Assembly (NCBI GenBank): GCA_028819955.1
Contig: JAPPKP010000060.1
Span: 1,987-29,167, forward strand
From: Rhodospirillaceae bacterium
GTDB lineage: Bacteria; Pseudomonadota; Alphaproteobacteria; UBA828
Length of the DNA stretch: 27,181 nucleotides
Direction: 5' to 3'
How positions within the stretch are numbered: position 1 is the first letter of the stretch; every line of letters begins with the position of its first letter. The translations under genes were made by a program, and so were the position numbers. The notes beneath the pieces were generated by a model. The model did not search any database. It was given only the letters and a program-made list of their open reading frames with translations, and was not told the DNA's origin. This document shows, in pieces, positions 14,924 to 22,947 of the stretch.

Positions 14924-15652
14924 GTGCGCATCACCGTCCTCCCGGATCGGGAGGCGCTCGATCGGGCAGCGGCGGACGTCATCTGGGAGGCGGCCCGCGC
15001 CAAGCCCGACCTGCTGATCTGCCTCGCGAGCGGGGGGACGCCGACGGGCACCTACGCGCTGCTGGCCGACGCGCCCGAGCGGCTGGCGGACGCGCGCTAC
15101 ATCCAGCTCGACGAGTGGGCCGGTCCGGGCCCCGACGACCCGGCGAGCTGTGCCGCCTACCTGGAGCGCACAGTGCGCGGCCCCCTCGCGGTGCCGCCGG
15201 AGCGCTGGATCGGCATTCGTGGCGACGCGGAGGACGAAGCCGCTGAGTGCCGGCGGGTGGCAGCGGCGTTGGAGGCCACCGGGCCCATCGATCTCTGCAT
15301 CCTGGGGCTGGGGCTGAACGGGCATCTGGCGCTGAACGAGCCGGCGGAGAGCTTCGACCCCTTCTGCCACGTCGCTACCCTCTCCGAACGATCGCGCACC
15401 CACCCGATGCTGGTCGGGGCCGCCGCCCCGGTCCGCCACGGCCTGACGCTCGGTCTTGGCGATATCCTGCGCGCCCGCCGCATCCTGCTCATTGTCTCCG
15501 GCGCCGCCAAGCGGGAGCCCCTCGCGCGGCTTGCGGCCCGTCGCGTCACGCCGACACTGCCTGCGTCGTTCCTGTGGCTGCACGGGGACGCCGTCTGCCT
15601 CTGCGACAGCGACGCCGCGGCCGACATCGAGCACGACGACGCCGAACCATGA
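14924..15652 (+). CDS. NagB-family amino-sugar-6-phosphate deaminase/isomerase
   Basis: The 242-residue protein matches the glucosamine-6-phosphate deaminase family, which converts amino-sugar phosphates to ketose phosphates and ammonia. Motifs are LASGGTPTG (34-42), LDEW (62-65) and GLNGHLALNEP (130-140). Aligned with E. coli NagB D141-H143-E148, the residues are N132-H134-E139, so the aspartate is replaced by asparagine. From memory, galactosamine-6-phosphate isomerase relatives also have Asn here, so the substrate may not be GlcN6P. I chose GTG 14924 because AAGGGG precedes it and the family fold begins there; upstream ATG 14846 would lie inside the oxidoreductase gene. The stop overlaps the ROK start as ATGA. 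Confidence 0.86.
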   Translation: MRITVLPDREALDRAAADVIWEAARAKPDLLICLASGGTPTGTYALLADAPERLADARYIQLDEWAGPGPDDPASCAAYLERTVRGPLAVPPERWIGIRGDAEDEAAECRRVAAALEATGPIDLCILGLGLNGHLALNEPAESFDPFCHVATLSERSRTHPMLVGAAAPVRHGLTLGLGDILRARRILLIVSGAAKREPLARLAARRVTPTLPASFLWLHGDAVCLCDSDAAADIEHDDAEP

Positions 15653-15906
15653 GTTCCTGCGCCATCGGCGTCGACATCGGCGGCACCAAGATCGCGGTCG
15701 GCGCTGTCGATGCGGCCGGTGCGGTGCATGCGCGGCGGACCATCGCGACCGACGCCGAGGCGGGCTTCGAGGCGGGGCTGGAGCGGCTCACCCGGGCCAT
15801 CGACGAGACCCTGGCCGAGGCGGGCATCGATGTCGCCACGCTTGCGGGCATCGGCCTCGGCTGCCCCGGCCCCTTCGACGAGGCGACCGGGCGGATCGAG
15901 AATTTC
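15649..15906 (+). pseudogene. ROK-family sugar kinase, 5' part, interrupted by transposon
   Basis: These 86 codons encode the N-terminus of a ROK kinase, starting MSSCAIGVDIGGTK with the phosphate-binding DIGGTK (9-14), then GLGCPGPFDEATGRIENF. The frame is broken after codon 86, where element A begins. Readthrough into the element adds 39 unrelated residues and stops at 16026. Joined to 22294-22947, the gene is in frame and 303 residues long, a normal length for this family. It overlaps the nagB stop as ATGA, so before the insertion it was the third gene of the operon, probably phosphorylating N-acetylglucosamine or a similar sugar. Confidence 0.93.
15899..15906. repeat. Target-site duplication of element A, left copy
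   Basis: AGAATTTC directly precedes the left terminal repeat of element A. The same 8 bp follows the right terminal repeat at 22286. Eight-base duplications are usual for the IS1595 family. Confidence 0.95.
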
Positions 15907-15932
15907 GGGGATTATGTAGGAAAGTGCCGAAG
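15907..15932 (+). repeat. Left terminal inverted repeat of element A
   Basis: These 26 bp, starting GGGGATTATGTAGGAAAG, are the exact reverse complement of 22260-22285. The match ends after position 26. Only two bases separate it from the stop codon of the leftward cargo gene. Confidence 0.95.
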
Positions 15933-15934
15933 GG

Positions 15935-16423
15935 TCACTGACTGGGCGGCCGCAGGCGGTCCCGCAACTCGACTTGGTAGACCCGTAGCACCTGCGCTAC
16001 CTCCGTGCCGTGCTGGTATGCCGTAGCGCGGACGCGGCGCTGAAACTCCTCATCCTCCGCAAAGACCTTCTCCACGTACGCGACGCACAGATCGAAGACC
16101 TCGAATTCCTCCTTGCCCGCCGCCTCGGCTTCAAGGTCGGGCGCATGACCGCCCGCCCATGCGCTCGCGTCACCCGTCGCGGAGATTTCCCGGCCAAAGT
16201 CGCTGAGCTGGATAGGGCTTGCCGAGACAGTCGCGGGCGGGGTGGGCAGGCGCCGGAATATCTCGGCAAGTGCGCCGCGCACTTCCTTCATGAATTCCTT
16301 GAAGGCGTCGCGGTCCGTATTGACCGCGCCGACCCATTTGCCGAACTTGAAGACTGCCGCCGTCGCGGTGATGACGATAGTTAGGCCGCCCCCGGCGGCC
16401 ACGCCGATCATCCAGTCGTCCAT
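15935..16423 (-). CDS. Membrane-anchored cargo protein of element A, function unknown
   Basis: I do not recognise a characterised family. The 162 residues begin with one probable transmembrane helix (about 5-25, rich in Gly, Ile, Val and Ala), then FKFGKWVGAVNTDRDAFKEF and a helical segment that could form a coiled coil. A linker with PTPPATVSASPIQLSDFG follows, then a charged helical C-terminus. The layout suggests a single-pass inner-membrane protein with a cytoplasmic domain. GGGGGAG lies upstream of ATG 16423. It is divergent from the transposase and ends 2 bp inside the left terminal repeat. Element B has no counterpart. Confidence 0.7.
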   Translation of the reverse strand: MDDWMIGVAAGGGLTIVITATAAVFKFGKWVGAVNTDRDAFKEFMKEVRGALAEIFRRLPTPPATVSASPIQLSDFGREISATGDASAWAGGHAPDLEAEAAGKEEFEVFDLCVAYVEKVFAEDEEFQRRVRATAYQHGTEVAQVLRVYQVELRDRLRPPSQ

Positions 16424-16435
16424 GGTGTCTCCCCC

Positions 16436-16450
16436 GAATTCGCCGGATTC
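16436..16450. promoter_or_regulatory. Near-perfect palindrome between divergent genes of element A
   Basis: GAATTCGCCGGATTC is a 15-bp inverted repeat with one mismatch. It lies between the leftward cargo gene and the transposase promoter. It could be an operator controlling both directions, but no regulator is identified. Confidence 0.25.
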
Positions 16451-16454
16451 GGTC

Positions 16455-16483
16455 TTGACACACTCGGCACTCTCCTGTAAGAT
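16455..16483 (+). promoter_or_regulatory. Promoter of the element A transposase operon
   Basis: A perfect TTGACA (16455-16460) is followed after 17 bp by TAAGAT (16478-16483). The expected transcription start is near 16490, and the ribosome site AGGGAGG lies just before the ATG at 16510. Confidence 0.75.
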
Positions 16484-16509
16484 CGGATCATCTTAGGGAG
16501 GCGACAGCG

Positions 16510-17484
16510 ATGACCAAGGCACCCGGCAAATCCCACCGCGAAGGCATCTCGCTGATCGAGATTATGCGGCGGTTCCCCGACGATGCAACCGCCGAGGCGT
16601 GGTTCGTCGAGCGCCGTTGGCCCGATGGCGTCCACTGCCCGCACTGCGGATCGGTCAACGTGCAGACCGGCGCGAGGCACAAGTCCATGCCCTACCGCTG
16701 CCGTGAGAAGGAATGCGGCAAGCGCTTCAGCGCGAAGACCGGCACGGTCATGGAAGGCTCAAAGCTCGGCTTCCAGGTGTGGATGGTTGCCACGTACCAG
16801 ATGACGACCTCGCTCAAGTCCGTGAGTTCGATGAAGCTACATCGGGACTTGAACATCAATCAGCGCAGCGCGTGGTTCCTGGCGCACCGGCTGCGGGTCG
16901 CACTGGCCGATGAGGGGGGCGTGTTCTCCGGTCCCGTCGAAGTTGATGAGACCTACGTCGGCGGGAAGATGAAGAACATGCACGGCGACAAGCGCCGCGA
17001 AGCCCGCAACAAGCCCGATTACGGCAAGACCATCGTTGCGGGCGCGAAGGATCGCGCCACCGGCGCCGTGCGCGCCCAGGTGATCGAGGCGGCGGACAAA
17101 GAGACCCTGACGGCCTTCGTCGGCGCCCACGCGGCCCCTGACGCCGCGATCTACACCGATGAGGCCCGCGCCTACAGCGGCCTGCCCAACCGCGAGACCG
17201 TCAACCATTCGGCTGGCGAGTACGTCACCGATGACGGCGTGAGCACCAACGGAATTGAGTCTCTGTGGTCCATGTTCAAGCGCGGCCACGTCGGCACGTT
17301 CCACAAGATGTCGCCCAAGCACATGGGCCGGTACGTCGGGGAGTTCGCCGGGCGCCACAACATGCGGGACCGGGACACCATCGACATGATGGCCGCGGTG
17401 GCCGATGGCGGAGTTGGGAAGCGTCTGCGCTATCGGGAACTGATCGCCGATAACGGCCTGTCGTCCGCCGCGCGGACCGCATGA
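16510..17484 (+). CDS. IS1595-family transposase of element A (zinc ribbon plus ISXO2-like DDE domain)
   Basis: The 324-residue transposase should cut and join the terminal repeats of element A. A zinc ribbon (C43, C46, C64, C69) is followed by a helical linker and an ISXO2-like DDE domain with D146 in VDETYVGGK, D217 in IYTDEARAY and E250 in TNGIESLW. The ATG at 16510 has AGGGAGG upstream. Its stop overlaps the methyltransferase start as ATGA, so cargo translation is coupled to the transposase. Bases 16960-17252 are identical to the element B transposase although the rest of the two genes is clearly diverged. The gene looks intact. Confidence 0.94.
   Translation: MTKAPGKSHREGISLIEIMRRFPDDATAEAWFVERRWPDGVHCPHCGSVNVQTGARHKSMPYRCREKECGKRFSAKTGTVMEGSKLGFQVWMVATYQMTTSLKSVSSMKLHRDLNINQRSAWFLAHRLRVALADEGGVFSGPVEVDETYVGGKMKNMHGDKRREARNKPDYGKTIVAGAKDRATGAVRAQVIEAADKETLTAFVGAHAAPDAAIYTDEARAYSGLPNRETVNHSAGEYVTDDGVSTNGIESLWSMFKRGHVGTFHKMSPKHMGRYVGEFAGRHNMRDRDTIDMMAAVADGGVGKRLRYRELIADNGLSSAARTA
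16960..17252 (+). repeat. 293-bp identical block shared with the element B transposase, copy 1
   Basis: I compared this block base by base with 19804-20096 and found no difference over 293 bp. Two mismatches lie just upstream, within a near-identical lead-in starting about 16928. Beyond the block, the downstream sequences diverge at once. The block covers the segment between the first Asp and third acidic residue of the DDE triad. Confidence 0.97.
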
Positions 17485-18920
17485 CGCCCAACTTCGCGTC
17501 CGGCACGGTCTGGACGGGCGACAACCTCCCCGTCATGCGCGGCATGAACGACGCCTGCGTTGACCTGATCTATCTCGACCCGCCGTTCAACAAGGAGCGG
17601 GACTTTGAGGCTCCGATAGGCTCGCAGGCAGCGGGCGCCGCGTTCAAGGACGCATGGACACTGGACGATGTTGACGTGTGCGAGCACGGGGAGCTGGCGG
17701 ACAGGAACCCGGCGGCCTATGCGGTGATCGAGGCCGCGCGCCTGACGCGGGGCAAATCGCTCCAGTCCTATCTGATCTTCATGGCCGTGCGGCTGATCGA
17801 GATGCGGCGCCTGCTAAAGCCCGATGGCAGCATCTATCTTCACTGCGACGATACGGCGGGGCACTACCTCAAAGTGCTCATGGACGCCATTTTCGGCGGC
17901 GGCCACTTCCGCAATGCCATTACGTGGCGACGTGCCACGGCGCACAACGATCCTGGGCGGTACGGGCGGATTTCCGATTACCTGCTGTTCTACACGGCGG
18001 GTGAAAAGTGGACATGGAACGATGTCCGCGAGGAACCGGACGAGAGCAAGATTGAGAAAGCATACCCGCGAGTGGACGAGGACGGCCGCCGCTACCGTTC
18101 CGCCGACCTCACGGGAGCGGCCCACGGCACGTCGGGTGGCGAATCTTCGCGCGAGTGGAAGGGCTACGATGTCGCCTCGCGCGGGCGCGTGTGGTCGCCT
18201 CCCAAGACTGGCACCTACGCCGACTACATCGAGGAACACTTGATCCCCGCCTACAAGGCCATCGCCGGGGTGCATGACAGGCTTGCCGCGCTCGACGAGG
18301 CCGGGCTGATCGTGCATCCCCAAAGGGGATTCTGGCCCGGATTGAAGCGCTACGCCGATGCCGACATGGGGAAGCCGCTTCAGGACATCATTTGGAAGCC
18401 GACCGGGCTGACTAACTACAACCGGAAGGAGCGGACAGGCTATCCGACGCAGAAGCCGGTGGCGTTGCTCGACCGGATCGTGAAGGCGTCGAGCAACCCC
18501 GGAGACATGATCCTCGATCCGTTCTGCGGGTGCGCCACGGCGCTGGTAGTCGCTGATCGCCTTTCGCGCCGATGGGCAGGAATCGACCTATCGCCGCTCG
18601 CGGTCAAGCTGGTGGACGAGCGGATCGCCGAGGATCGCGGCTTGTGGGGCGGCGCCACGGTCCCTGACGGCCCACCAGCGCGCACCGACCTTGGCGACCT
18701 TCCGAACTACCGGACGCACCGGCATCGCCTGTACGGCGAGCAGGAGGGCGTCTGCGCGGGCTGCGAAACGCACTTCCCGTTCCGCGTCATGGACGTGGAC
18801 CACATGCTGCCGCGCGTGAGGGGCGGAACGGACCATCCCGACAACCTTCAGCTTCTCTGTTCCGGCTGCAATCGGAGCAAGGGCGGCAAGACGATGGCCG
18901 AATGGAGGGCCGCGCAATGA
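17481..18920 (+). CDS. DNA methyltransferase (beta class) fused to HNH nuclease domain, element A cargo
   Basis: The 479-residue fusion has an S-adenosylmethionine-dependent DNA methyltransferase (about 1-390) and a C-terminal HNH domain (about 418-470). Catalytic DPPF (33-36) comes before the cofactor loop DPFCGCAT (346-353), the order of the beta class, which makes N6-methyladenine or N4-methylcytosine. YPTQKP (321-326) and SIYLHCD (117-123) are further class marks. The HNH has C425/C428, DVDHMLPRVRGG with H441, N455 and C460/C463, as in zinc-stabilised HNH endonucleases. Both halves look intact. Its start overlaps the transposase stop. Whether it restricts, protects, or only methylates is unknown. 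Confidence 0.88.
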   Translation: MTPNFASGTVWTGDNLPVMRGMNDACVDLIYLDPPFNKERDFEAPIGSQAAGAAFKDAWTLDDVDVCEHGELADRNPAAYAVIEAARLTRGKSLQSYLIFMAVRLIEMRRLLKPDGSIYLHCDDTAGHYLKVLMDAIFGGGHFRNAITWRRATAHNDPGRYGRISDYLLFYTAGEKWTWNDVREEPDESKIEKAYPRVDEDGRRYRSADLTGAAHGTSGGESSREWKGYDVASRGRVWSPPKTGTYADYIEEHLIPAYKAIAGVHDRLAALDEAGLIVHPQRGFWPGLKRYADADMGKPLQDIIWKPTGLTNYNRKERTGYPTQKPVALLDRIVKASSNPGDMILDPFCGCATALVVADRLSRRWAGIDLSPLAVKLVDERIAEDRGLWGGATVPDGPPARTDLGDLPNYRTHRHRLYGEQEGVCAGCETHFPFRVMDVDHMLPRVRGGTDHPDNLQLLCSGCNRSKGGKTMAEWRAAQ

Positions 18921-19102
18921 CTCACCTTCTCCCGGTGCTGGCACTTGCGGCAGCGATGGTCGCCGGCGAGGCACCCCAGGCGGGACCCGCTGCCGAGCAA
19001 GCGCCGCCGGCGCGCGTCATCTTGGGCGTAGATTGCCGCGAGCCGCTCATGGTGAGCCTGCCCGATGACGTGCTTACCGAATGCGAGGGGGAAGCGCGAT
19101 GA
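18917..19102 (+). CDS. Small signal-peptide-like cargo protein of element A
   Basis: I do not recognise a family. The 61 residues start MTHLLPVLALAAAMVAG, which resembles a signal peptide or single membrane helix, followed by a Pro/Ala/Gln linker and a short C-terminal segment with two cysteines (C40, C56). The ATG overlaps the methyltransferase stop as ATGA, and its own stop overlaps the next start in the same way. That arrangement supports translation despite the short length. There is no counterpart in element B. Confidence 0.55.
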   Translation: MTHLLPVLALAAAMVAGEAPQAGPAAEQAPPARVILGVDCREPLMVSLPDDVLTECEGEAR

Positions 19103-19272
19103 CCACCAAGCCGAAGGCTCGCGAGGTCGAGATTGTCAGCCCGGACTACCAGCCGAGCGCTGCGGAGCTTGAGGAAGACGTGCGGGTTGAAGCGACGTTC
19201 GATGAGGCGGTGGACGCGCTCACCCGGCCCGTGAGCATCCGCTACGTGGACAGCCCGAAGGACGCAGAATGA
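19099..19272 (+). CDS. Small acidic last gene of element A, related to the last gene of element B
   Basis: The 57-residue acidic product starts MTTKPKAREVEIVSPDY. Element B ends with a gene whose product starts MTDKPTPKVEVLNPRY, so residues 1 to about 24 are alike (MT.KP....VE...P.Y). Both are the final gene of their element and both start through an ATGA overlap. The function is unknown. A DNA-mimic, regulator or small partner of the methyltransferase-HNH protein are guesses only. It ends just before the point where B inserted. Confidence 0.6.
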   Translation: MTTKPKAREVEIVSPDYQPSAAELEEDVRVEATFDEAVDALTRPVSIRYVDSPKDAE

Positions 19273-19273
19273 G

Positions 19274-19281
19274 CGGACTTC
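19274..19281. repeat. Target-site duplication of element B, left copy
   Basis: CGGACTTC directly precedes the left terminal repeat of element B and is repeated directly after its right end at 22256. Its last four bases are the inner end of element A's right terminal repeat. Confidence 0.93.
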
Positions 19282-19305
19282 GGGAATTATATACTTGACT
19301 GAAAG
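19282..19305 (+). repeat. Left terminal inverted repeat of element B
   Basis: The 24 bp start GGGAATTATATAC and end in CTGAAAG; 23 of 24 match the reverse complement of 22232-22255. The first 12 bases also resemble the ends of element A (10 of 12). A TTGACT promoter box lies inside it. Confidence 0.94.
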
Positions 19306-19323
19306 TCCGCACGCCCCTATGAT
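19295..19323 (+). promoter_or_regulatory. Promoter of the element B transposase, -35 box inside the terminal repeat
   Basis: TTGACT (19295-19300) lies inside the left terminal repeat and is followed after 17 bp by TATGAT (19318-19323). Transposase bound to the end would cover the -35 box, so self-repression is plausible. AAGGGG lies before the ATG at 19357. Confidence 0.75.
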
Positions 19324-19356
19324 GGAGTCATCAAGTTAGCGCAAGGGGTTACGGTC

Positions 19357-20325
19357 ATGGCGAAGGCACCTGGGAAAGCTCACCGCGAGGGTATCAGCTT
19401 CATCGAGCTCGCCGACATGTTCCCCGATGAGGAAACGGCGACCAAGTGGTTCGAGTCCCTGATCTGGCCGAACGGTCGTCATTGCCCCCGCTGCGGTTCG
19501 GTCGAGACTTCCGAGGCGGCGGCCACGTCCGGCCTGCCCTACTACTGCTCGGGCTGCCACAAGCCGTTTTCGGTGAAGATCGGGACGGCACTGGAGCGGT
19601 CCCGTGTTCCGCTGCGCAAGTGGGCCATCGCCATCTATTTCGAGATGGTCTCGCTCAAGGGCGTTTCGTCCATGCGGCTGCATCGCGACTTGAAGGTTAC
19701 GCAGAAAACGGCATGGTTCATGCAGCAGCGGATTCGCGAGGCGTGGGCTGGCAAGGGTGAGGCGATGATGGCCGGTCCCGTCGAAGTCGATGAGACCTAC
19801 GTGGGCGGGAAGATGAAGAACATGCACGGCGACAAGCGCCGCGAAGCCCGCAACAAGCCCGATTACGGCAAGACCATCGTTGCGGGCGCGAAGGATCGCG
19901 CCACCGGCGCCGTGCGCGCCCAGGTGATCGAGGCGGCGGACAAAGAGACCCTGACGGCCTTCGTCGGCGCCCACGCGGCCCCTGACGCCGCGATCTACAC
20001 CGATGAGGCCCGCGCCTACAGCGGCCTGCCCAACCGCGAGACCGTCAACCATTCGGCTGGCGAGTACGTCACCGATGACGGCGTGAGCACCAACGGGATT
20101 GAGGCCCTATGGGCCGTGATCAAGCGGGCGCAGAATGGCGTCTACCACAAGCTGAGTCCCAAGCATCTGCATCGCTACGTCGCGGGCTTCGCGGCCAAGC
20201 ACAACATCCGGGACGCTGACACGCTGGACCAGATGGCTTCCGTCGTCGCCGGGATGGTGGGCAAGCGCCTGATGTACCGCGACCTGATCGCGGACAACGG
20301 CCTATCCTCGGGGGCGCGGACATGA
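19357..20325 (+). CDS. IS1595-family transposase of element B (zinc ribbon plus ISXO2-like DDE domain)
   Basis: The 322 residues have the same layout as the element A transposase: zinc ribbon C43, C46, C64, C67, then DDE residues D145, D216 and E249. The N-termini share APGK.HREGIS but the zinc ribbons and C-termini are clearly diverged, so each probably recognises its own terminal repeats. Bases 19804-20096 are identical to element A. The stop overlaps the next gene as ATGA. It appears intact, so element B may still be active if its ends are functional. Confidence 0.94.
   Translation: MAKAPGKAHREGISFIELADMFPDEETATKWFESLIWPNGRHCPRCGSVETSEAAATSGLPYYCSGCHKPFSVKIGTALERSRVPLRKWAIAIYFEMVSLKGVSSMRLHRDLKVTQKTAWFMQQRIREAWAGKGEAMMAGPVEVDETYVGGKMKNMHGDKRREARNKPDYGKTIVAGAKDRATGAVRAQVIEAADKETLTAFVGAHAAPDAAIYTDEARAYSGLPNRETVNHSAGEYVTDDGVSTNGIEALWAVIKRAQNGVYHKLSPKHLHRYVAGFAAKHNIRDADTLDQMASVVAGMVGKRLMYRDLIADNGLSSGART
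19804..20096 (+). repeat. 293-bp identical block shared with the element A transposase, copy 2
   Basis: This block has no difference from 16960-17252. The boundary is sharp downstream and shows two mismatches just upstream. It gives the two transposases a mosaic structure. Confidence 0.97.
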
Positions 20326-20594
20326 CCAACGACGAAATCAAGGCGCAGATCGGTCAAGCTGCCATCGAGCGGAAGGAATGCCTTGATCAAATGTCCTGCT
20401 ACAAACGGCGATTGGACGACGCCGCTCATAAGCTCCGCCAGTTGTTGAATGATCGGGGCAACCCACTGCATGAAGACAATCAGCGCTTCCTGCATCTTGA
20501 GACAGACCCGCGACTCGATGCGCAAGGCTTTGTGGAAGCCAAGACCCGCGCGGAAGAACTGACGGCTTTCCTGAAACAGCACAACGCCCTCTAG
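20322..20594 (+). CDS. Small helical cargo protein of element B, function unknown
   Basis: I do not recognise a family. The 90 residues are strongly charged and helical in appearance: MTNDEIKAQIGQAAIERKE, then RRLDDAAHKLRQLLND and a C-terminal EELTAFLKQHNAL. The product could form a coiled coil or bind the neighbouring proteins. The ATG overlaps the transposase stop as ATGA, and the stop lies 6 bp before the methyltransferase start, so it is part of the element's operon. Element A lacks it; there the methyltransferase follows the transposase directly. Confidence 0.7.
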   Translation: MTNDEIKAQIGQAAIERKECLDQMSCYKRRLDDAAHKLRQLLNDRGNPLHEDNQRFLHLETDPRLDAQGFVEAKTRAEELTAFLKQHNAL

Positions 20595-20600
20595 GCGGCT

Positions 20601-22089
20601 ATGGCCGCCAACTGGGCGAACCGCACCCTGTTTCACGGGGACAATCTCGGCTTCCTTCGGGCGATGAACAGCGAGAGCGTGGACCTGATCGCTACGGACC
20701 CGCCGTTCAACAAGGGCCGGGACTTCCATGCCACGCCTGACAGCCTCGCCGCCGGCGCCCGCTTCCAAGACCGATGGTCGTGGGAACGCGACGTTCACGA
20801 GTCGTGGACGGATCAAATCACGGACGATCACCCAAGGCTCATGGAGGCGATTGAGTCGGCCCGTTATGCCCATTCGGACGGGATGGGAGCCTATATGTGC
20901 TTCATGGCTGTGCGCCTACTGGCCATGCACCGCGTGCTCAAGCCGACCGGCTCCATCTATTTGCACTGCGATCCCACGGCCTCGCACTACTTGAAGGCCG
21001 TCATGGACGCGATATTCGGGTGCGAAAATTTCCGGTCGGAAATCATTTGGAAACGGACGGGATCGCACGGTGGCGCGAGCCGCTGGGGGCCAATCCATGA
21101 CACGATTTTGTTTTCCGCGAAGAGTCGGAAACAGACTTGGAATCGGACGTTCCAGCCATACAGCGAGGATTATCTGCGCTCTCACTACAACCACAAGGAT
21201 AAGCGAGGGCGCTACCAGCCCGTTAGCTTGACTGGAACTGGCACGCGAACTGGCGAATCCGGCCAGCCTTGGCGGGGAATCGACCCGACCGCTGTGGGGC
21301 GACATTGGGCCGTGCCGAGTGCGGCGCTGCAAACGGCATTTCCTGATCGCGACGTTGATGGTCTCACGACGCAACAGCGATTGGACCTGCTAGACGAAGC
21401 GGGTTTGATCCACTGGCCGCCGAAGGGTCGGGTTCCGCGTCAAAAGCGGTACGCCCACGAAAACCCCGGTGTGCCTCTGCAAGACATCGTGACAGACATC
21501 AACCCCGCGGGGGGGGGAGCGCAAGGGCTACCCGACGCAAAAGCCCTTGGCGCTCTATGAACGGATGATCCGCGCGAGCTCGAACGAAGGCGACGTTGTG
21601 TGTGACCCATTCGCGGGTTGCGCGACGACTCTGGTGGCGTCGGAGCGGTTGGGCCGACAGTGGGTCGGTATGGACATCTGGGAGGGCGCGCACCGGCTTG
21701 TTGTCGAGCGGCTGAAGGATGTCACTGGATTGTTCGGGGAAGTCACCTTCACGGCGGAGCCGCCGGCGCGGACAGATGACGGCGAGACCGCCGCGCCGTA
21801 TCTCCGCGTCAAAGAGCGGGTGAAAGAACCCGAGGGTCCGCGATGGTCGCGTGCCGAGATGTATGAACACCTGATCCGCCAGAACGGGCCGGTCTGCCAA
21901 GGCTGCGACCGCACCTTTGACGATCCGCGCTACTTGGAGCTCGACCACAACGTCCCGCGCTCGGACGGTGGGATTAATCACATCACGAACCGGATTCTGC
22001 TGTGCGGTCCATGCAACCGGCTCAAGAGCAACATCTACACGTTGAGCGGCCTGCGCCGCGAAAACACGAAACGGGGTTACATGCCATGA
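20601..22089 (+). pseudogene. DNA methyltransferase-HNH fusion of element B, frameshifted at a run of nine G
   Basis: The first frame (20601-21560) encodes the N-terminal methyltransferase with DPPF at 33-36, SIYLHCD and the target-recognition region. It then runs out of frame at nine consecutive G (21509-21517). The second frame carries YPTQKP, the cofactor loop DPFAGCATT and an HNH domain with CQGC, LELDHNVPRSDGG and CGPC. With eight G the frames join as AGGERKGYPTQKP, matching ERTGYPTQKP in the element A homologue and giving about 495 residues. The change may be a sequencing error, a decay mutation or slipped-strand phase variation. The stop overlaps the last small gene as ATGA. Confidence 0.85.
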
Positions 22090-22250
22090 CTGACAAACCG
22101 ACGCCGAAGGTAGAAGTGCTGAATCCGCGCTACGCTGGCGCTACGCCTGAAATGGTGGCGCTCGCGCTCTTGCGACACAAGCCGGATGAGGATGGCGGGG
22201 AGGAAGTATCCCCGATCATCGACGATCCCGGCTTTCAGTCAAATATATAA
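22086..22250 (+). CDS. Small last gene of element B, ending inside the terminal repeat
   Basis: The 54-residue product starts MTDKPTPKVEVLNPRYAG and resembles the last gene product of element A over its first two dozen residues. It then has an acidic stretch (DEDGGEE). The start is ATG 22086, through an ATGA overlap with the methyltransferase-HNH stop. Its last codons and TAA stop lie within the right terminal repeat of B. The function is unknown. Confidence 0.6.
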   Translation: MTDKPTPKVEVLNPRYAGATPEMVALALLRHKPDEDGGEEVSPIIDDPGFQSNI

Positions 22251-22255
22251 TTCCC
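22232..22255 (-). repeat. Right terminal inverted repeat of element B
   Basis: This 24-bp sequence reads GGGAATTATATAT and onward on the minus strand. It differs from the left end at position 13 only (T for C). Confidence 0.94.
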
Positions 22256-22263
22256 CGGACTTC
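22256..22263. repeat. Target-site duplication of element B, right copy
   Basis: CGGACTTC directly follows the right end of element B. Its last four bases, CTTC, complete element A's right terminal repeat. Confidence 0.93.
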
Positions 22264-22285
22264 GGCACTTTCCTACATAATCCCC
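22260..22285 (-). repeat. Right terminal inverted repeat of element A
   Basis: These 26 bp are the exact reverse complement of 15907-15932. The inner four bases come from the target duplication made by element B, so the repeat is complete despite the insertion. Confidence 0.95.
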
Positions 22286-22293
22286 AGAATTTC
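22286..22293. repeat. Target-site duplication of element A, right copy
   Basis: AGAATTTC directly follows the right end of element A and matches 15899-15906. Confidence 0.95.
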
Positions 22294-22939
22294 TATACCC
22301 TCCCCGGCTGGGAGGGGAACGACATCGTGAGCCCGCTCGTCGCCCGCTTCGACACGCCGGTGCAGCTCGTCAACGACGCGGATGCGGCGCTGCTGGGCGA
22401 GGCGCTGGCCGGCGCGGCCCGCGGCGCCCGCGTCGCGCTGATGCTGACCATCGGCACCGGCCTCGGCGGCGCGGCGCTGATCGACGGCGCGATCCTGCGT
22501 GGCGCCGCGCGCGACCATCCGGAGATCGGCCACCTCATCGTCGACCCAGCCGGGCCCGAGTGTTACTGCGGCAGCCGAGGCTGCCTCGAATCCCTCGTTG
22601 CCGGGCCGGCGCTCGCACGCGCGGGCGCCGCGTTCGGCTATGCGGACGCCGAGGCCGTCTTCACCGCCGCCGAGGCCGGAGCGGAGCCGGCCAGGGCGAT
22701 CGTCGACCGCAGCACGGAGGCGATGGAGACGGCGATCTGGAGCCTCGTCCACACGCTCCTGCCCGAGGTGATCCTCATCGGCGGCGGTATCGGCGAGCGC
22801 CACTTCGCGCTCTATCGCGAGGCCGCAGAGCGCGCCATCGGGCGCGCCGTGCTCGCACCCGCGGGGGCGATTCGCGTGGTGAAGGCCGCGCTCGGCAACG
22901 ATGCTGGCATGGTGGGCGCAGCGGCGCTGATGCTCGACC

Positions 22940-22947
<8 letters not shown>
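22294..22947 (+). pseudogene. ROK-family sugar kinase, 3' part, separated by transposon
   Basis: These 217 codons complete the ROK kinase. They begin YTLPGWEGNDIV, the stretch that normally follows the N-terminal domain, then LVNDADAALLGE with the catalytic aspartate (D114 in the joined protein), TIGTGLGGAAL, and the zinc-binding pattern GHLIV followed by CYCGSRGCLE. The frame is open upstream through both right terminal repeats to an ATG at 22186, so a 253-residue hybrid could be made, but it would lack the DIGGTK phosphate-binding half. The stop overlaps the next gene by 8 bp. Confidence 0.93.

What the first reader, a model, noticed from the sequence alone, without database searches (positions are those of the whole stretch)
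15907..22285. Nested IS1595-family transposons each carrying a methyltransferase-HNH fusion
Two independently bounded elements of the same family, with different ends and diverged transposases, each carry a beta-class DNA methyltransferase fused to a C-terminal HNH nuclease domain plus a related small last gene. Recurrence in two diverged elements suggests the cargo is selected. Possible roles: protection of the element from host restriction, a single-chain restriction-modification addiction module, methylation of transposon ends that controls transposition, or a nuclease that assists integration. The gene layout is seen directly; roles are inferred. IS1595 elements with passenger genes are established, but I cannot say whether this combination has been described.
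Basis: partly seen in the sequence, partly recalled or inferred. Interest (0 to 1): 0.88.

Follow-up and report, generated by a model that had tools for sequence, protein, structure and literature searches.

The report
Transposons carrying restriction-modification modules
Two small jumping genes, one inserted inside the other, each carry an enzyme gene that looks built both to mark and to cut DNA (one of the two copies is broken), and relatives elsewhere often carry other marking-plus-cutting enzymes in the same place, which suggests that this kind of transposon spreads bacterial DNA-defence genes.

Summary
Confirmed. Two nested IS1595-family unit transposons lie at 15907-22285. The outer has 26/26-bp terminal repeats and target duplication AGAATTTC; the inner (19282-22255) has 23/24-bp repeats and CGGACTTC; 40 shuffles gave none. 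Each carries a Mod-like beta-class methyltransferase (MTase) with a C-terminal HNH domain and a small last gene ("YQPS"). The inner MTase is frame-broken at a 9-G run.

The small gene is a conserved unnamed family tied to this transposase group. Retrieving loci by that gene gave 32 with a transposase upstream; 21 carry a DNA MTase (14/14 in genomes first reached through MTase-HNH, 7/18 elsewhere). In 17 a nuclease is recognisable: fused HNH, Mrr or GIY-YIG, or separate SacI-like, SfiI-like or HNH enzymes. The pairing persists while enzyme family, nuclease fold and fusion state change, so restriction-modification (R-M) is the best reading. End methylation and nuclease-aided integration fit worse.

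Against: 48 of 60 MTase-HNH loci have no IS1595 transposase within 2.5 kb; 11 of 32 elements show no MTase; the two transposases share a 293-bp identical core. Activity is untested. IS1595 cargo and mobile R-M are known separately; nine capped literature searches listed no report of the combination.

The parts
15899..15906 (.). 8-bp target duplication of the outer element, left copy AGAATTTC
15907..15932 (+). outer element, left TIR, 26 bp
   Evidence: 26/26 with right TIR; I1
15935..16423 (-). 162-aa ORF of unknown function inside the outer element
   Evidence: no NCBIfam, PHROG or PADLOC family; one sub-threshold Pfam hit E 0.07
16510..17484 (+). outer IS1595 transposase, 324 aa (zinc ribbon PF12760 + DDE PF12762)
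   Evidence: 98% identical relative P0122
16960..17252 (+). core identical to the inner transposase gene (293-nt exact run; shared block 300 nt at 99%)
17481..18920 (+). MTase-HNH fusion, 479 aa; start overlaps the transposase stop by 4 bp
   Evidence: PF01555 27-377, PF01844 425-468; model most like EcoP15I Mod
18917..19102 (+). small ORF with hydrophobic N-terminus, unknown
   Evidence: no family hit
19099..19272 (+). YQPS gene (57 aa), last gene of the outer element
   Evidence: 79 homologues listed; alignment A4
19274..19281 (.). 8-bp target duplication of the inner element, left copy CGGACTTC
19282..19305 (+). inner element, left TIR, 24 bp (23/24)
   Evidence: I2
19357..20325 (+). inner IS1595 transposase, 322 aa, core of the outer type
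19804..20096 (+). inner copy of the 293-nt identical core
20322..20594 (+). 90-aa ORF, unknown, 4-bp overlap with transposase stop
   Evidence: no family hit
20601..21560 (+). inner MTase-HNH, first piece (MTase N-core and target-recognition region; homology to about 21509)
   Evidence: PF01555; HMM match to 21509
21509..21517 (+). G9 run at the frame break of the inner MTase
   Evidence: only run of 8 or more G or C in the window
21547..22089 (+). inner MTase-HNH, second piece (motif I and HNH domain)
   Evidence: PF01555, PF01844
22086..22250 (+). inner YQPS-type gene (54 aa), last gene of the inner element
   Evidence: E 1e-12 in a profile that included it
22232..22255 (-). inner element, right TIR
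22256..22263 (.). inner target duplication, right copy CGGACTTC (overlaps outer right TIR)
22260..22285 (-). outer element, right TIR
22286..22293 (.). outer target duplication, right copy AGAATTTC

Best explanation
Both elements belong to a group of IS1595-family unit transposons: TIR beginning GGG[G/A]ATTATATA or close to it, transposase, an exchangeable cargo region, a small YQPS gene usually next to the right TIR, and an 8-bp target duplication. The cargo region is recurrently filled by R-M modules. In the window the module is a single polypeptide: a Mod-like, N6-adenine-type MTase with a variable target-recognition region, plus an HNH nuclease. It most likely acts as a single-chain (Type IIC-like) restriction-modification enzyme: it methylates its motif in the host genome and cuts DNA that lacks the mark. 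This would help retain the element and defend its host against phages and rival elements. Shown: anatomy, boundaries, nesting, recurrence with other MTase+nuclease pairs, conserved active-site residues, variable recognition region. Inferred: both activities, their coupling, and the benefit to element or host. The YQPS gene is part of the transposon (transposition accessory or regulator, inferred), not the partner of the MTase.
For: Ends and TSDs; chance control 0 of 40. YQPS-based retrieval (38 places; 16 further places; all fetched) gave 32 loci with a same-strand transposase within 5.5 kb upstream; 21 carry a DNA MTase in or beside the slot. Cargo kinds: MTase fused to HNH (L312, L313, L330, L332, L335, L337, L338, L340, L343, L355, L366; at least L330, L332, L338 and L366 are broken or split in frame), to Mrr_cat (L328), to GIY-YIG T5orf172 (L336); separate pairs: D12 MTase + SacI enzyme (L309; PF09566 E 6e-22), MTase + SfiI enzyme (L365; PF11487 E 6e-47, transposase remnant only), MTase + HNH (L339), C5 MTase + HNH (L341 = L253; HNH just below the Pfam cut-off). 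L334 is a 2,086-bp element with perfect TSD, C5 MTase + HNH-like enzyme (below cut-off) + YQPS and no transposase. Across 118 of 120 aligned relatives each listed catalytic residue is kept in at least 116, while the recognition region averages 45% pairwise identity against 73-76% for the other parts. Transposase and MTase similarity are not correlated in 16 elements (Spearman 0.19, 177 of 1000 permutations as high), so modules appear to be exchanged. YQPS and transposase hits share 13 contig lengths, the window's own included (shifted control mean 0.145, maximum 2).
Against: No activity was measured. 4 of the 21 MTase elements show no nuclease that I recognise (L318, L319, L333, L342). 11 of 32 show no MTase. 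Five genomes that supply 14 of the 32 were first reached through an MTase-HNH query; outside them the figure is 7 of 18. L332 and L338 look like copies in one genome. Most MTase-HNH loci are not beside an IS1595 transposase (48 of 60), in viral contigs only 6 of 80 MTase loci have one, and in a transposase-based sample of 96 genomes 2 of 28 loci had an MTase match. An MTase of the asymmetric Mod type usually marks one strand (recalled), which complicates a plain single-chain R-M. The HNH part of the model is low-confidence (10-residue means 39-66 pLDDT).
Confidence: 0.7

Rival explanations
1. Self-protection only: the MTase hides the element from host restriction when it enters a new cell, and the nuclease domain is secondary.
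For: Elements with an MTase and no nuclease found by my profiles exist (L318, L319, L333, L342; L264; L069 and L074; the last three were not scanned against Pfam). Solitary MTases are common on mobile elements (PMC4176335, passages read).
Against: HNH residues are kept in at least 116 of 118 relatives; nucleases of several folds accompany the MTase, and restriction-enzyme families (SacI, SfiI) occur in the same slot.
Confidence: 0.15
2. The MTase methylates the transposon ends or the transposase promoter and so couples transposition to replication, as Dam does for IS10 and IS50.
For: Precedent for Dam control of IS4- and IS5-family elements is stated in PMC9296519 (passage read). The MTase start overlaps the transposase stop by 4 bp, so the two could be co-expressed (sequence).
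Against: L322 has nearly the same TIR start (19 of 20 bases), a perfect TSD and no recognised MTase. Transposase and MTase similarity are uncorrelated, and recognition regions vary widely. The MTase may be of an unrelated class (C5, D12).
Confidence: 0.05
3. The HNH nuclease assists integration or homing, like IscB in IS200/IS605 elements.
For: The HNH domain gives partial NCBIfam hits to IscB (E 3e-8) and Cas9d (E 1e-8), both far below cut-off.
Against: No RuvC domain among the Pfam hits and no Rfam match up to E 1 in 15800-22400. The nuclease fold is exchangeable, or no nuclease is seen, in elements with perfect TSDs.
Confidence: 0.05
4. Accidental passenger: a common environmental MTase-HNH gene was caught twice and means nothing for the element.
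For: The family is huge (all 8000 scored candidates matched) and 48 of 60 loci are not beside an IS1595 transposase. In the class of G022 only 2 of 28 transposase loci show an MTase match.
Against: 28 of 82 transposase rows within 2 kb of an MTase against 0.64 pairs expected. Different MTase classes and restriction-enzyme families occupy the same slot.
Confidence: 0.05

Closest known systems
IS1595 family with passenger genes (tIS), e.g. ISNha5, tISCpe8, MTnSag1
   Same: Transposase family, zinc ribbon, 8-bp TSD, TIRs near 25 bp, passenger genes (PMC8101967, PMC11891212, PMC5704250; passages read)
   Different: Passenger genes named there for this family are a regulator (ISNha5) and lincomycin resistance (tISCpe8, reference title); methyltransferase passengers are named for IS1380. 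R-M pairs, the YQPS gene and transposase-free R-M cassettes were not in the passages read. The founding paper (Siguier 2009) was neither looked up nor read, so it may describe methyltransferase cargo.
Type IIC / IIG single-polypeptide R-M enzymes
   Same: MTase and nuclease in one chain; overabundant in mobile elements (PMC4176335, passages read)
   Different: Here the MTase is Mod-like beta class and the nuclease a C-terminal HNH domain; an N-terminal PD-(D/E)XK nuclease with a gamma-class MTase is usual in Type IIG (recalled).
Type III Mod subunits (EcoP15I Mod)
   Same: Best fold match, motif order, variable recognition region
   Different: No Res helicase-nuclease gene among the 10 ORFs scanned; HNH fused instead.
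Tn7-like transposons with defence cargo; IS-linked R-M
   Same: R-M modules are the most common defence cargo of Tn7-like elements (PMC8649781, passages read); R-M flanked by IS copies can move (PMC3031569, passages read)
   Different: Those are Tn7-like or composite. Here the R-M module sits inside a 2-4 kb single-transposase unit.

Membership tests
IS1595-family transposon | Zinc ribbon + IS1595 DDE transposase | tested here: met
   PF12760, PF12762 and NF033547 above cut-off for both
IS1595-family transposon | Terminal inverted repeats bounding the element | tested here: met
   26/26 and 23/24
IS1595-family transposon | 8-bp target duplication | tested here: met
   AGAATTTC and CGGACTTC, both exact; 0 of 40 shuffles
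IS1595-family transposon | Transposition activity | not testable with these tools
   needs a mating-out or excision assay
Type IIC-like single-chain R-M | MTase and nuclease domains in one polypeptide | tested here: met
   outer gene intact; the inner one is frame-broken
Type IIC-like single-chain R-M | Both active sites intact | tested here: met
   present in the outer protein; each listed residue kept in at least 116 of 118 relatives
Type IIC-like single-chain R-M | Sequence-specific methylation and cutting of unmethylated DNA | not testable with these tools
   biochemistry or long-read methylation needed
Type III R-M | Mod subunit paired with a Res subunit | tested here: not met
   no Res match among the 10 element ORFs scanned
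IscB / OMEGA system | RuvC + HNH nuclease with guide RNA | tested here: not met
   no RuvC among Pfam hits, IscB model far below cut-off, no Rfam match

The most novel reading that the evidence does not exclude
A dedicated class of 2-4 kb IS1595 unit transposons, marked by the YQPS gene and carrying an exchangeable R-M slot (including transposase-free R-M cassettes such as L334), is a main and so far overlooked vehicle that spreads Type II-like R-M systems among uncultivated, partly symbiotic bacteria. It would help explain why R-M systems turn over fast although they are rare on the known mobile elements.
Probability: 0.45. Interest if true: 0.78.

Novelty: new variant of a known kind. Interest (0 to 1): 0.62.

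Why it matters
Oliveira et al. [quoted passage not shown] Small unit transposons with an R-M slot are a concrete, searchable answer: the YQPS gene and the GGG[G/A]ATTATATA-type ends let one count them. The variety of MTase+nuclease solutions in one slot also gives a natural series for asking what R-M cargo does for a transposon.

Tried and rejected
MTase-HNH adjacency alone as proof: rejected, because most relatives are not beside an IS1595 transposase. TSD length as a general control on the first 160 loci: with TIR >=17/20 the numbers of loci with an exact duplication of 5, 6, 7, 8, 9, 10 and 11 bp were 2, 7, 2, 7, 1, 0 and 1; 8 bp stands above 7 and 9 but 6 bp is as frequent, so that scan alone is weak and I rely on individual elements and the shuffles. 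I first read L355 as a transposase + YQPS element without MTase; one search showed an MTase-HNH after the YQPS gene, and the counts were corrected. The MTase of L222 scored only 27 bits; fuller sequence (L262/L339) showed another MTase with a separate HNH gene. An RNA-guided reading was tested and dropped. Plasmid collection: 4 records match the MTase part only (about 38% identity over 78-79%), none the transposase at E 1e-50, and DNA matches are short pieces, so no named plasmid example was found. Literature: nine searches; five of the lists were cut (20 of 104, 40 of 67, 20 of 169, 20 of 104, 15 of 126). None of the listed papers is on this combination as far as titles and abstract starts tell; I opened passages of 10 papers. 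Siguier 2009 was not looked up; Furuta 2010 is not held.
Full report
What is there. The window holds an IS1595-family transposon (15907-22285) that has taken a second one of the same family (19282-22255) at the inner edge of its right end. The outer element has 26/26-bp TIRs and the 8-bp TSD AGAATTTC; the inner has 23/24-bp TIRs and TSD CGGACTTC. A scan for paired TIR and 8-bp TSD returns exactly these two and none in 40 block-shuffled windows. The target gene is a ROK kinase: the right half matches PF00480 and the left half starts at about 15650 (sequence). Each element has transposase, MTase-HNH and small last gene in that order on the plus strand, with small unknown ORFs besides and 4-bp overlaps between several genes (sequence).

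The two transposases. Both have the IS1595 zinc ribbon and DDE domain. They are clearly diverged outside a 300-nt core that is 99% identical, with one exact run of 293 nt. The outer transposase has a relative on another contig that is 98% identical over its whole length (P0122) and keeps that core, whereas the flanks of the inner one find at best about 53% (N) and 69-72% (C) in the set compared, which was 120 hits to the outer transposase plus 14 from other elements. Gene conversion from the outer type to the inner copy is the likely cause. An assembly artefact cannot be ruled out without reads.

The MTase-HNH protein. It is a beta-class MTase (DPPF early, motif I late) with an HNH domain at the C-terminus. 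The structure model is most like EcoP15I Mod, with CcrM and M.BceJIV among the next; overall pLDDT is 71.7 and the HNH part is poor. Of the 120 best-listed relatives, 118 were used: each listed catalytic residue of MTase and HNH is kept in at least 116, and the central recognition region is far more variable (mean pairwise identity 45% against 73-76%); 689 of 2358 pairs with similar N-core and HNH have recognition regions under 35% identical. So both activities appear to be under selection while specificity shifts. The set is biased, being the best hits to one query.

Is the association real? Scanning genome contigs gave 80 loci, the best of 524 confirmed. 60 have HNH, and 12 of these have an IS1595 transposase match within 2.5 kb (two, L043 and L057, are weak fragments); among the 42 with full flanks it is 6. 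Of 20 without HNH, 3 do. Two further loci, L027 and L032, have IS1595-like TIRs and no transposase; L027 has a perfect TSD. Of 80 viral-contig loci 6 have a transposase and 2 an HNH match. So the enzyme is mostly found elsewhere. In the other direction, in 27 genomes I chose from those loci (favouring ones with a transposase), 28 of 82 transposase rows lie within 2 kb of an MTase of this family, with 0.64 pairs expected by chance. I entered the 82 strongest listed transposase rows and one row per MTase gene (108), dropping weaker and fragment rows; both outputs were themselves truncated. In a sample of 96 genomes from the class of G022 (titled Alphaproteobacteria), taken by transposase, 2 of the 28 loci examined (of 46 matches, 1.5 kb flanks, one MTase profile) showed a match. 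The trait therefore does not look general to IS1595.

The small last gene gives a fairer handle. It belongs to an unnamed family (consensus PKPRxVEIVxPDYQPSKAELEEDVRVxATFEEAVDALTRPVxIRYVDRP). The window's copy has no Pfam, NCBIfam, PHROG or PADLOC match, and the 79 listed homologues have no precomputed Pfam domain. 13 of these 79, the window's own included, share their longest-contig length with a hit of the transposase search (shifted control mean 0.145, maximum 2). I searched it, with an alignment of which 5 of 25 rows came from MTase-bearing elements, in 289 + 274 + 199 + 194 genomes (38 places) and in 11 + 28 + 201 more with a stricter threshold (16 new places fetched; some genomes recur between searches). 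Of these 54 loci, 32 have a same-strand IS1595 transposase match within 5.5 kb upstream (23, 9; some are fragments, such as L316, L354 and L365). The other 22 were left out and not each resolved; they include contig ends, opposite-strand transposases (L307, L320, L353), one transposase-free element (L334) and weak YQPS scores.

Cargo of the 32. 21 carry a DNA MTase: all 14 in the five genomes first reached through MTase-HNH (G006, G012, G021, G022, G024) and 7 of 18 in other genomes (L312, L313, L328, L339, L355, L365, L366). Six of the 14 carry other MTase classes or pairs than the one that led to those genomes (L309, L318, L319, L333, L341, L342), so the enrichment is not only selection. In 17 of the 21 a nuclease is recognisable: HNH fusion in 11 (by my own profile; L366 also by Pfam), Mrr fusion (L328), GIY-YIG fusion (L336), SacI-like enzyme (L309), SfiI-like enzyme (L365), separate HNH (L339, L341). 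No MTase was recognised in 11 (L310, L316, L322, L327, L254, L354, L359, L361, L362, L363, L367); L354 and L362 were checked by my MTase profile only, and of the others not every ORF was put to Pfam. 15 of the 32 show an exact 8-bp TSD with matching TIRs. Outside this count, L334 is a 2,086-bp element with TSD TTCGCAAT, a C5 MTase, an HNH-like enzyme and YQPS but no transposase, and L364 has an MTase-Mrr fusion with YQPS at a contig end. L253 is the same place as L341, and L262 the same as L339.

How it most likely works. The transposon moves as an IS1595 element. Its cargo acts as an R-M unit that marks the host genome and cuts unmarked DNA. The strongest argument is convergence: a C5, D12, N4/N6 or Mod-like MTase is accompanied by a nuclease of one of several folds, fused or separate, in the same kind of element. 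Transposase and MTase similarity do not track each other across 16 elements (Spearman 0.19; for L002 the compared MTase stretch was cut from its N-terminus, and for the inner element only its first piece was used), so modules appear to be exchanged. Retention of the element and defence of the host are inferred benefits, following general work on R-M and mobile elements (PMC4176335, PMC8649781; passages read). YQPS occurs in elements with and without MTase, so it belongs to the transposon and not to the enzyme; it is usually but not always the last gene (L355, L322).

Rivals. End methylation is disfavoured: L322 starts with almost the same TIR (19 of 20 bases) and has a TSD without a recognised MTase. 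Nuclease-aided homing is disfavoured: the nuclease fold changes, there is no RuvC match, and no Rfam match. Self-protection by the MTase alone remains possible for the MTase-only elements. Accident is disfavoured by the counts above.

What is known. IS1595 elements with passenger genes are established, R-M cargo is common in Tn7-like transposons, and IS-linked R-M movement has been shown. Nine paper searches listed nothing that I could recognise as IS1595 elements with R-M pairs; they cover an open-access library, several lists were cut, and I saw titles, abstract starts and passages of 10 papers. The paper that founded the family was not read. I therefore call it a new variant of a known kind.

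Limits. The window's genome is not held. Many locus titles are metagenome bins, several of Poribacteria and other lineages I know as sponge symbionts (titles; habitat partly recalled). No function has been tested.

Noticed in passing
16928-17252 and 19772-20096: Transposase genes of the nested elements share a nearly identical core (293-nt exact run) although the rest is diverged: likely gene conversion between resident transposons, or an assembly effect.
   Followed up: partly
21509-21517: A G9 run, the only G or C run of 8 or more in the window, sits at the frame break of the inner MTase; it could be a phase-variable tract as known for mod genes (recalled), a decay mutation or a read error.
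   Followed up: partly
L334:4861-6946: Transposase-free IS1595-type cassette with C5 MTase, HNH-like enzyme and YQPS gene between TIRs with a perfect TSD.
   Followed up: yes
L365:143-1715: SfiI-family restriction enzyme with its MTase between an IS1595 transposase remnant and a YQPS gene.
   Followed up: partly
L060:6001-9850 and L031:5995-9030: Tandem arrays of three and two MTase-HNH genes with no IS1595 transposase match in the locus.
   Followed up: no
L322:3977-4378, L254:5353-5796, L312:6360-6785, L261:4927-5394: A second recurrent small protein with an NWVxAR..CT-like start follows the transposase in several elements; no family match for the three that were scanned.
   Followed up: partly
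L241:648-1487, L256:4956-5549, L310:5377-6363: Other IS1595 elements carry KilA-N, ClpP-like and EamA transporter genes as cargo.
   Followed up: no
15650-15906 and 22294-22947: A ROK kinase gene, next to a glucosamine-6-phosphate isomerase-type gene and a Gfo/Idh oxidoreductase, is disrupted by the insertion.
   Followed up: partly
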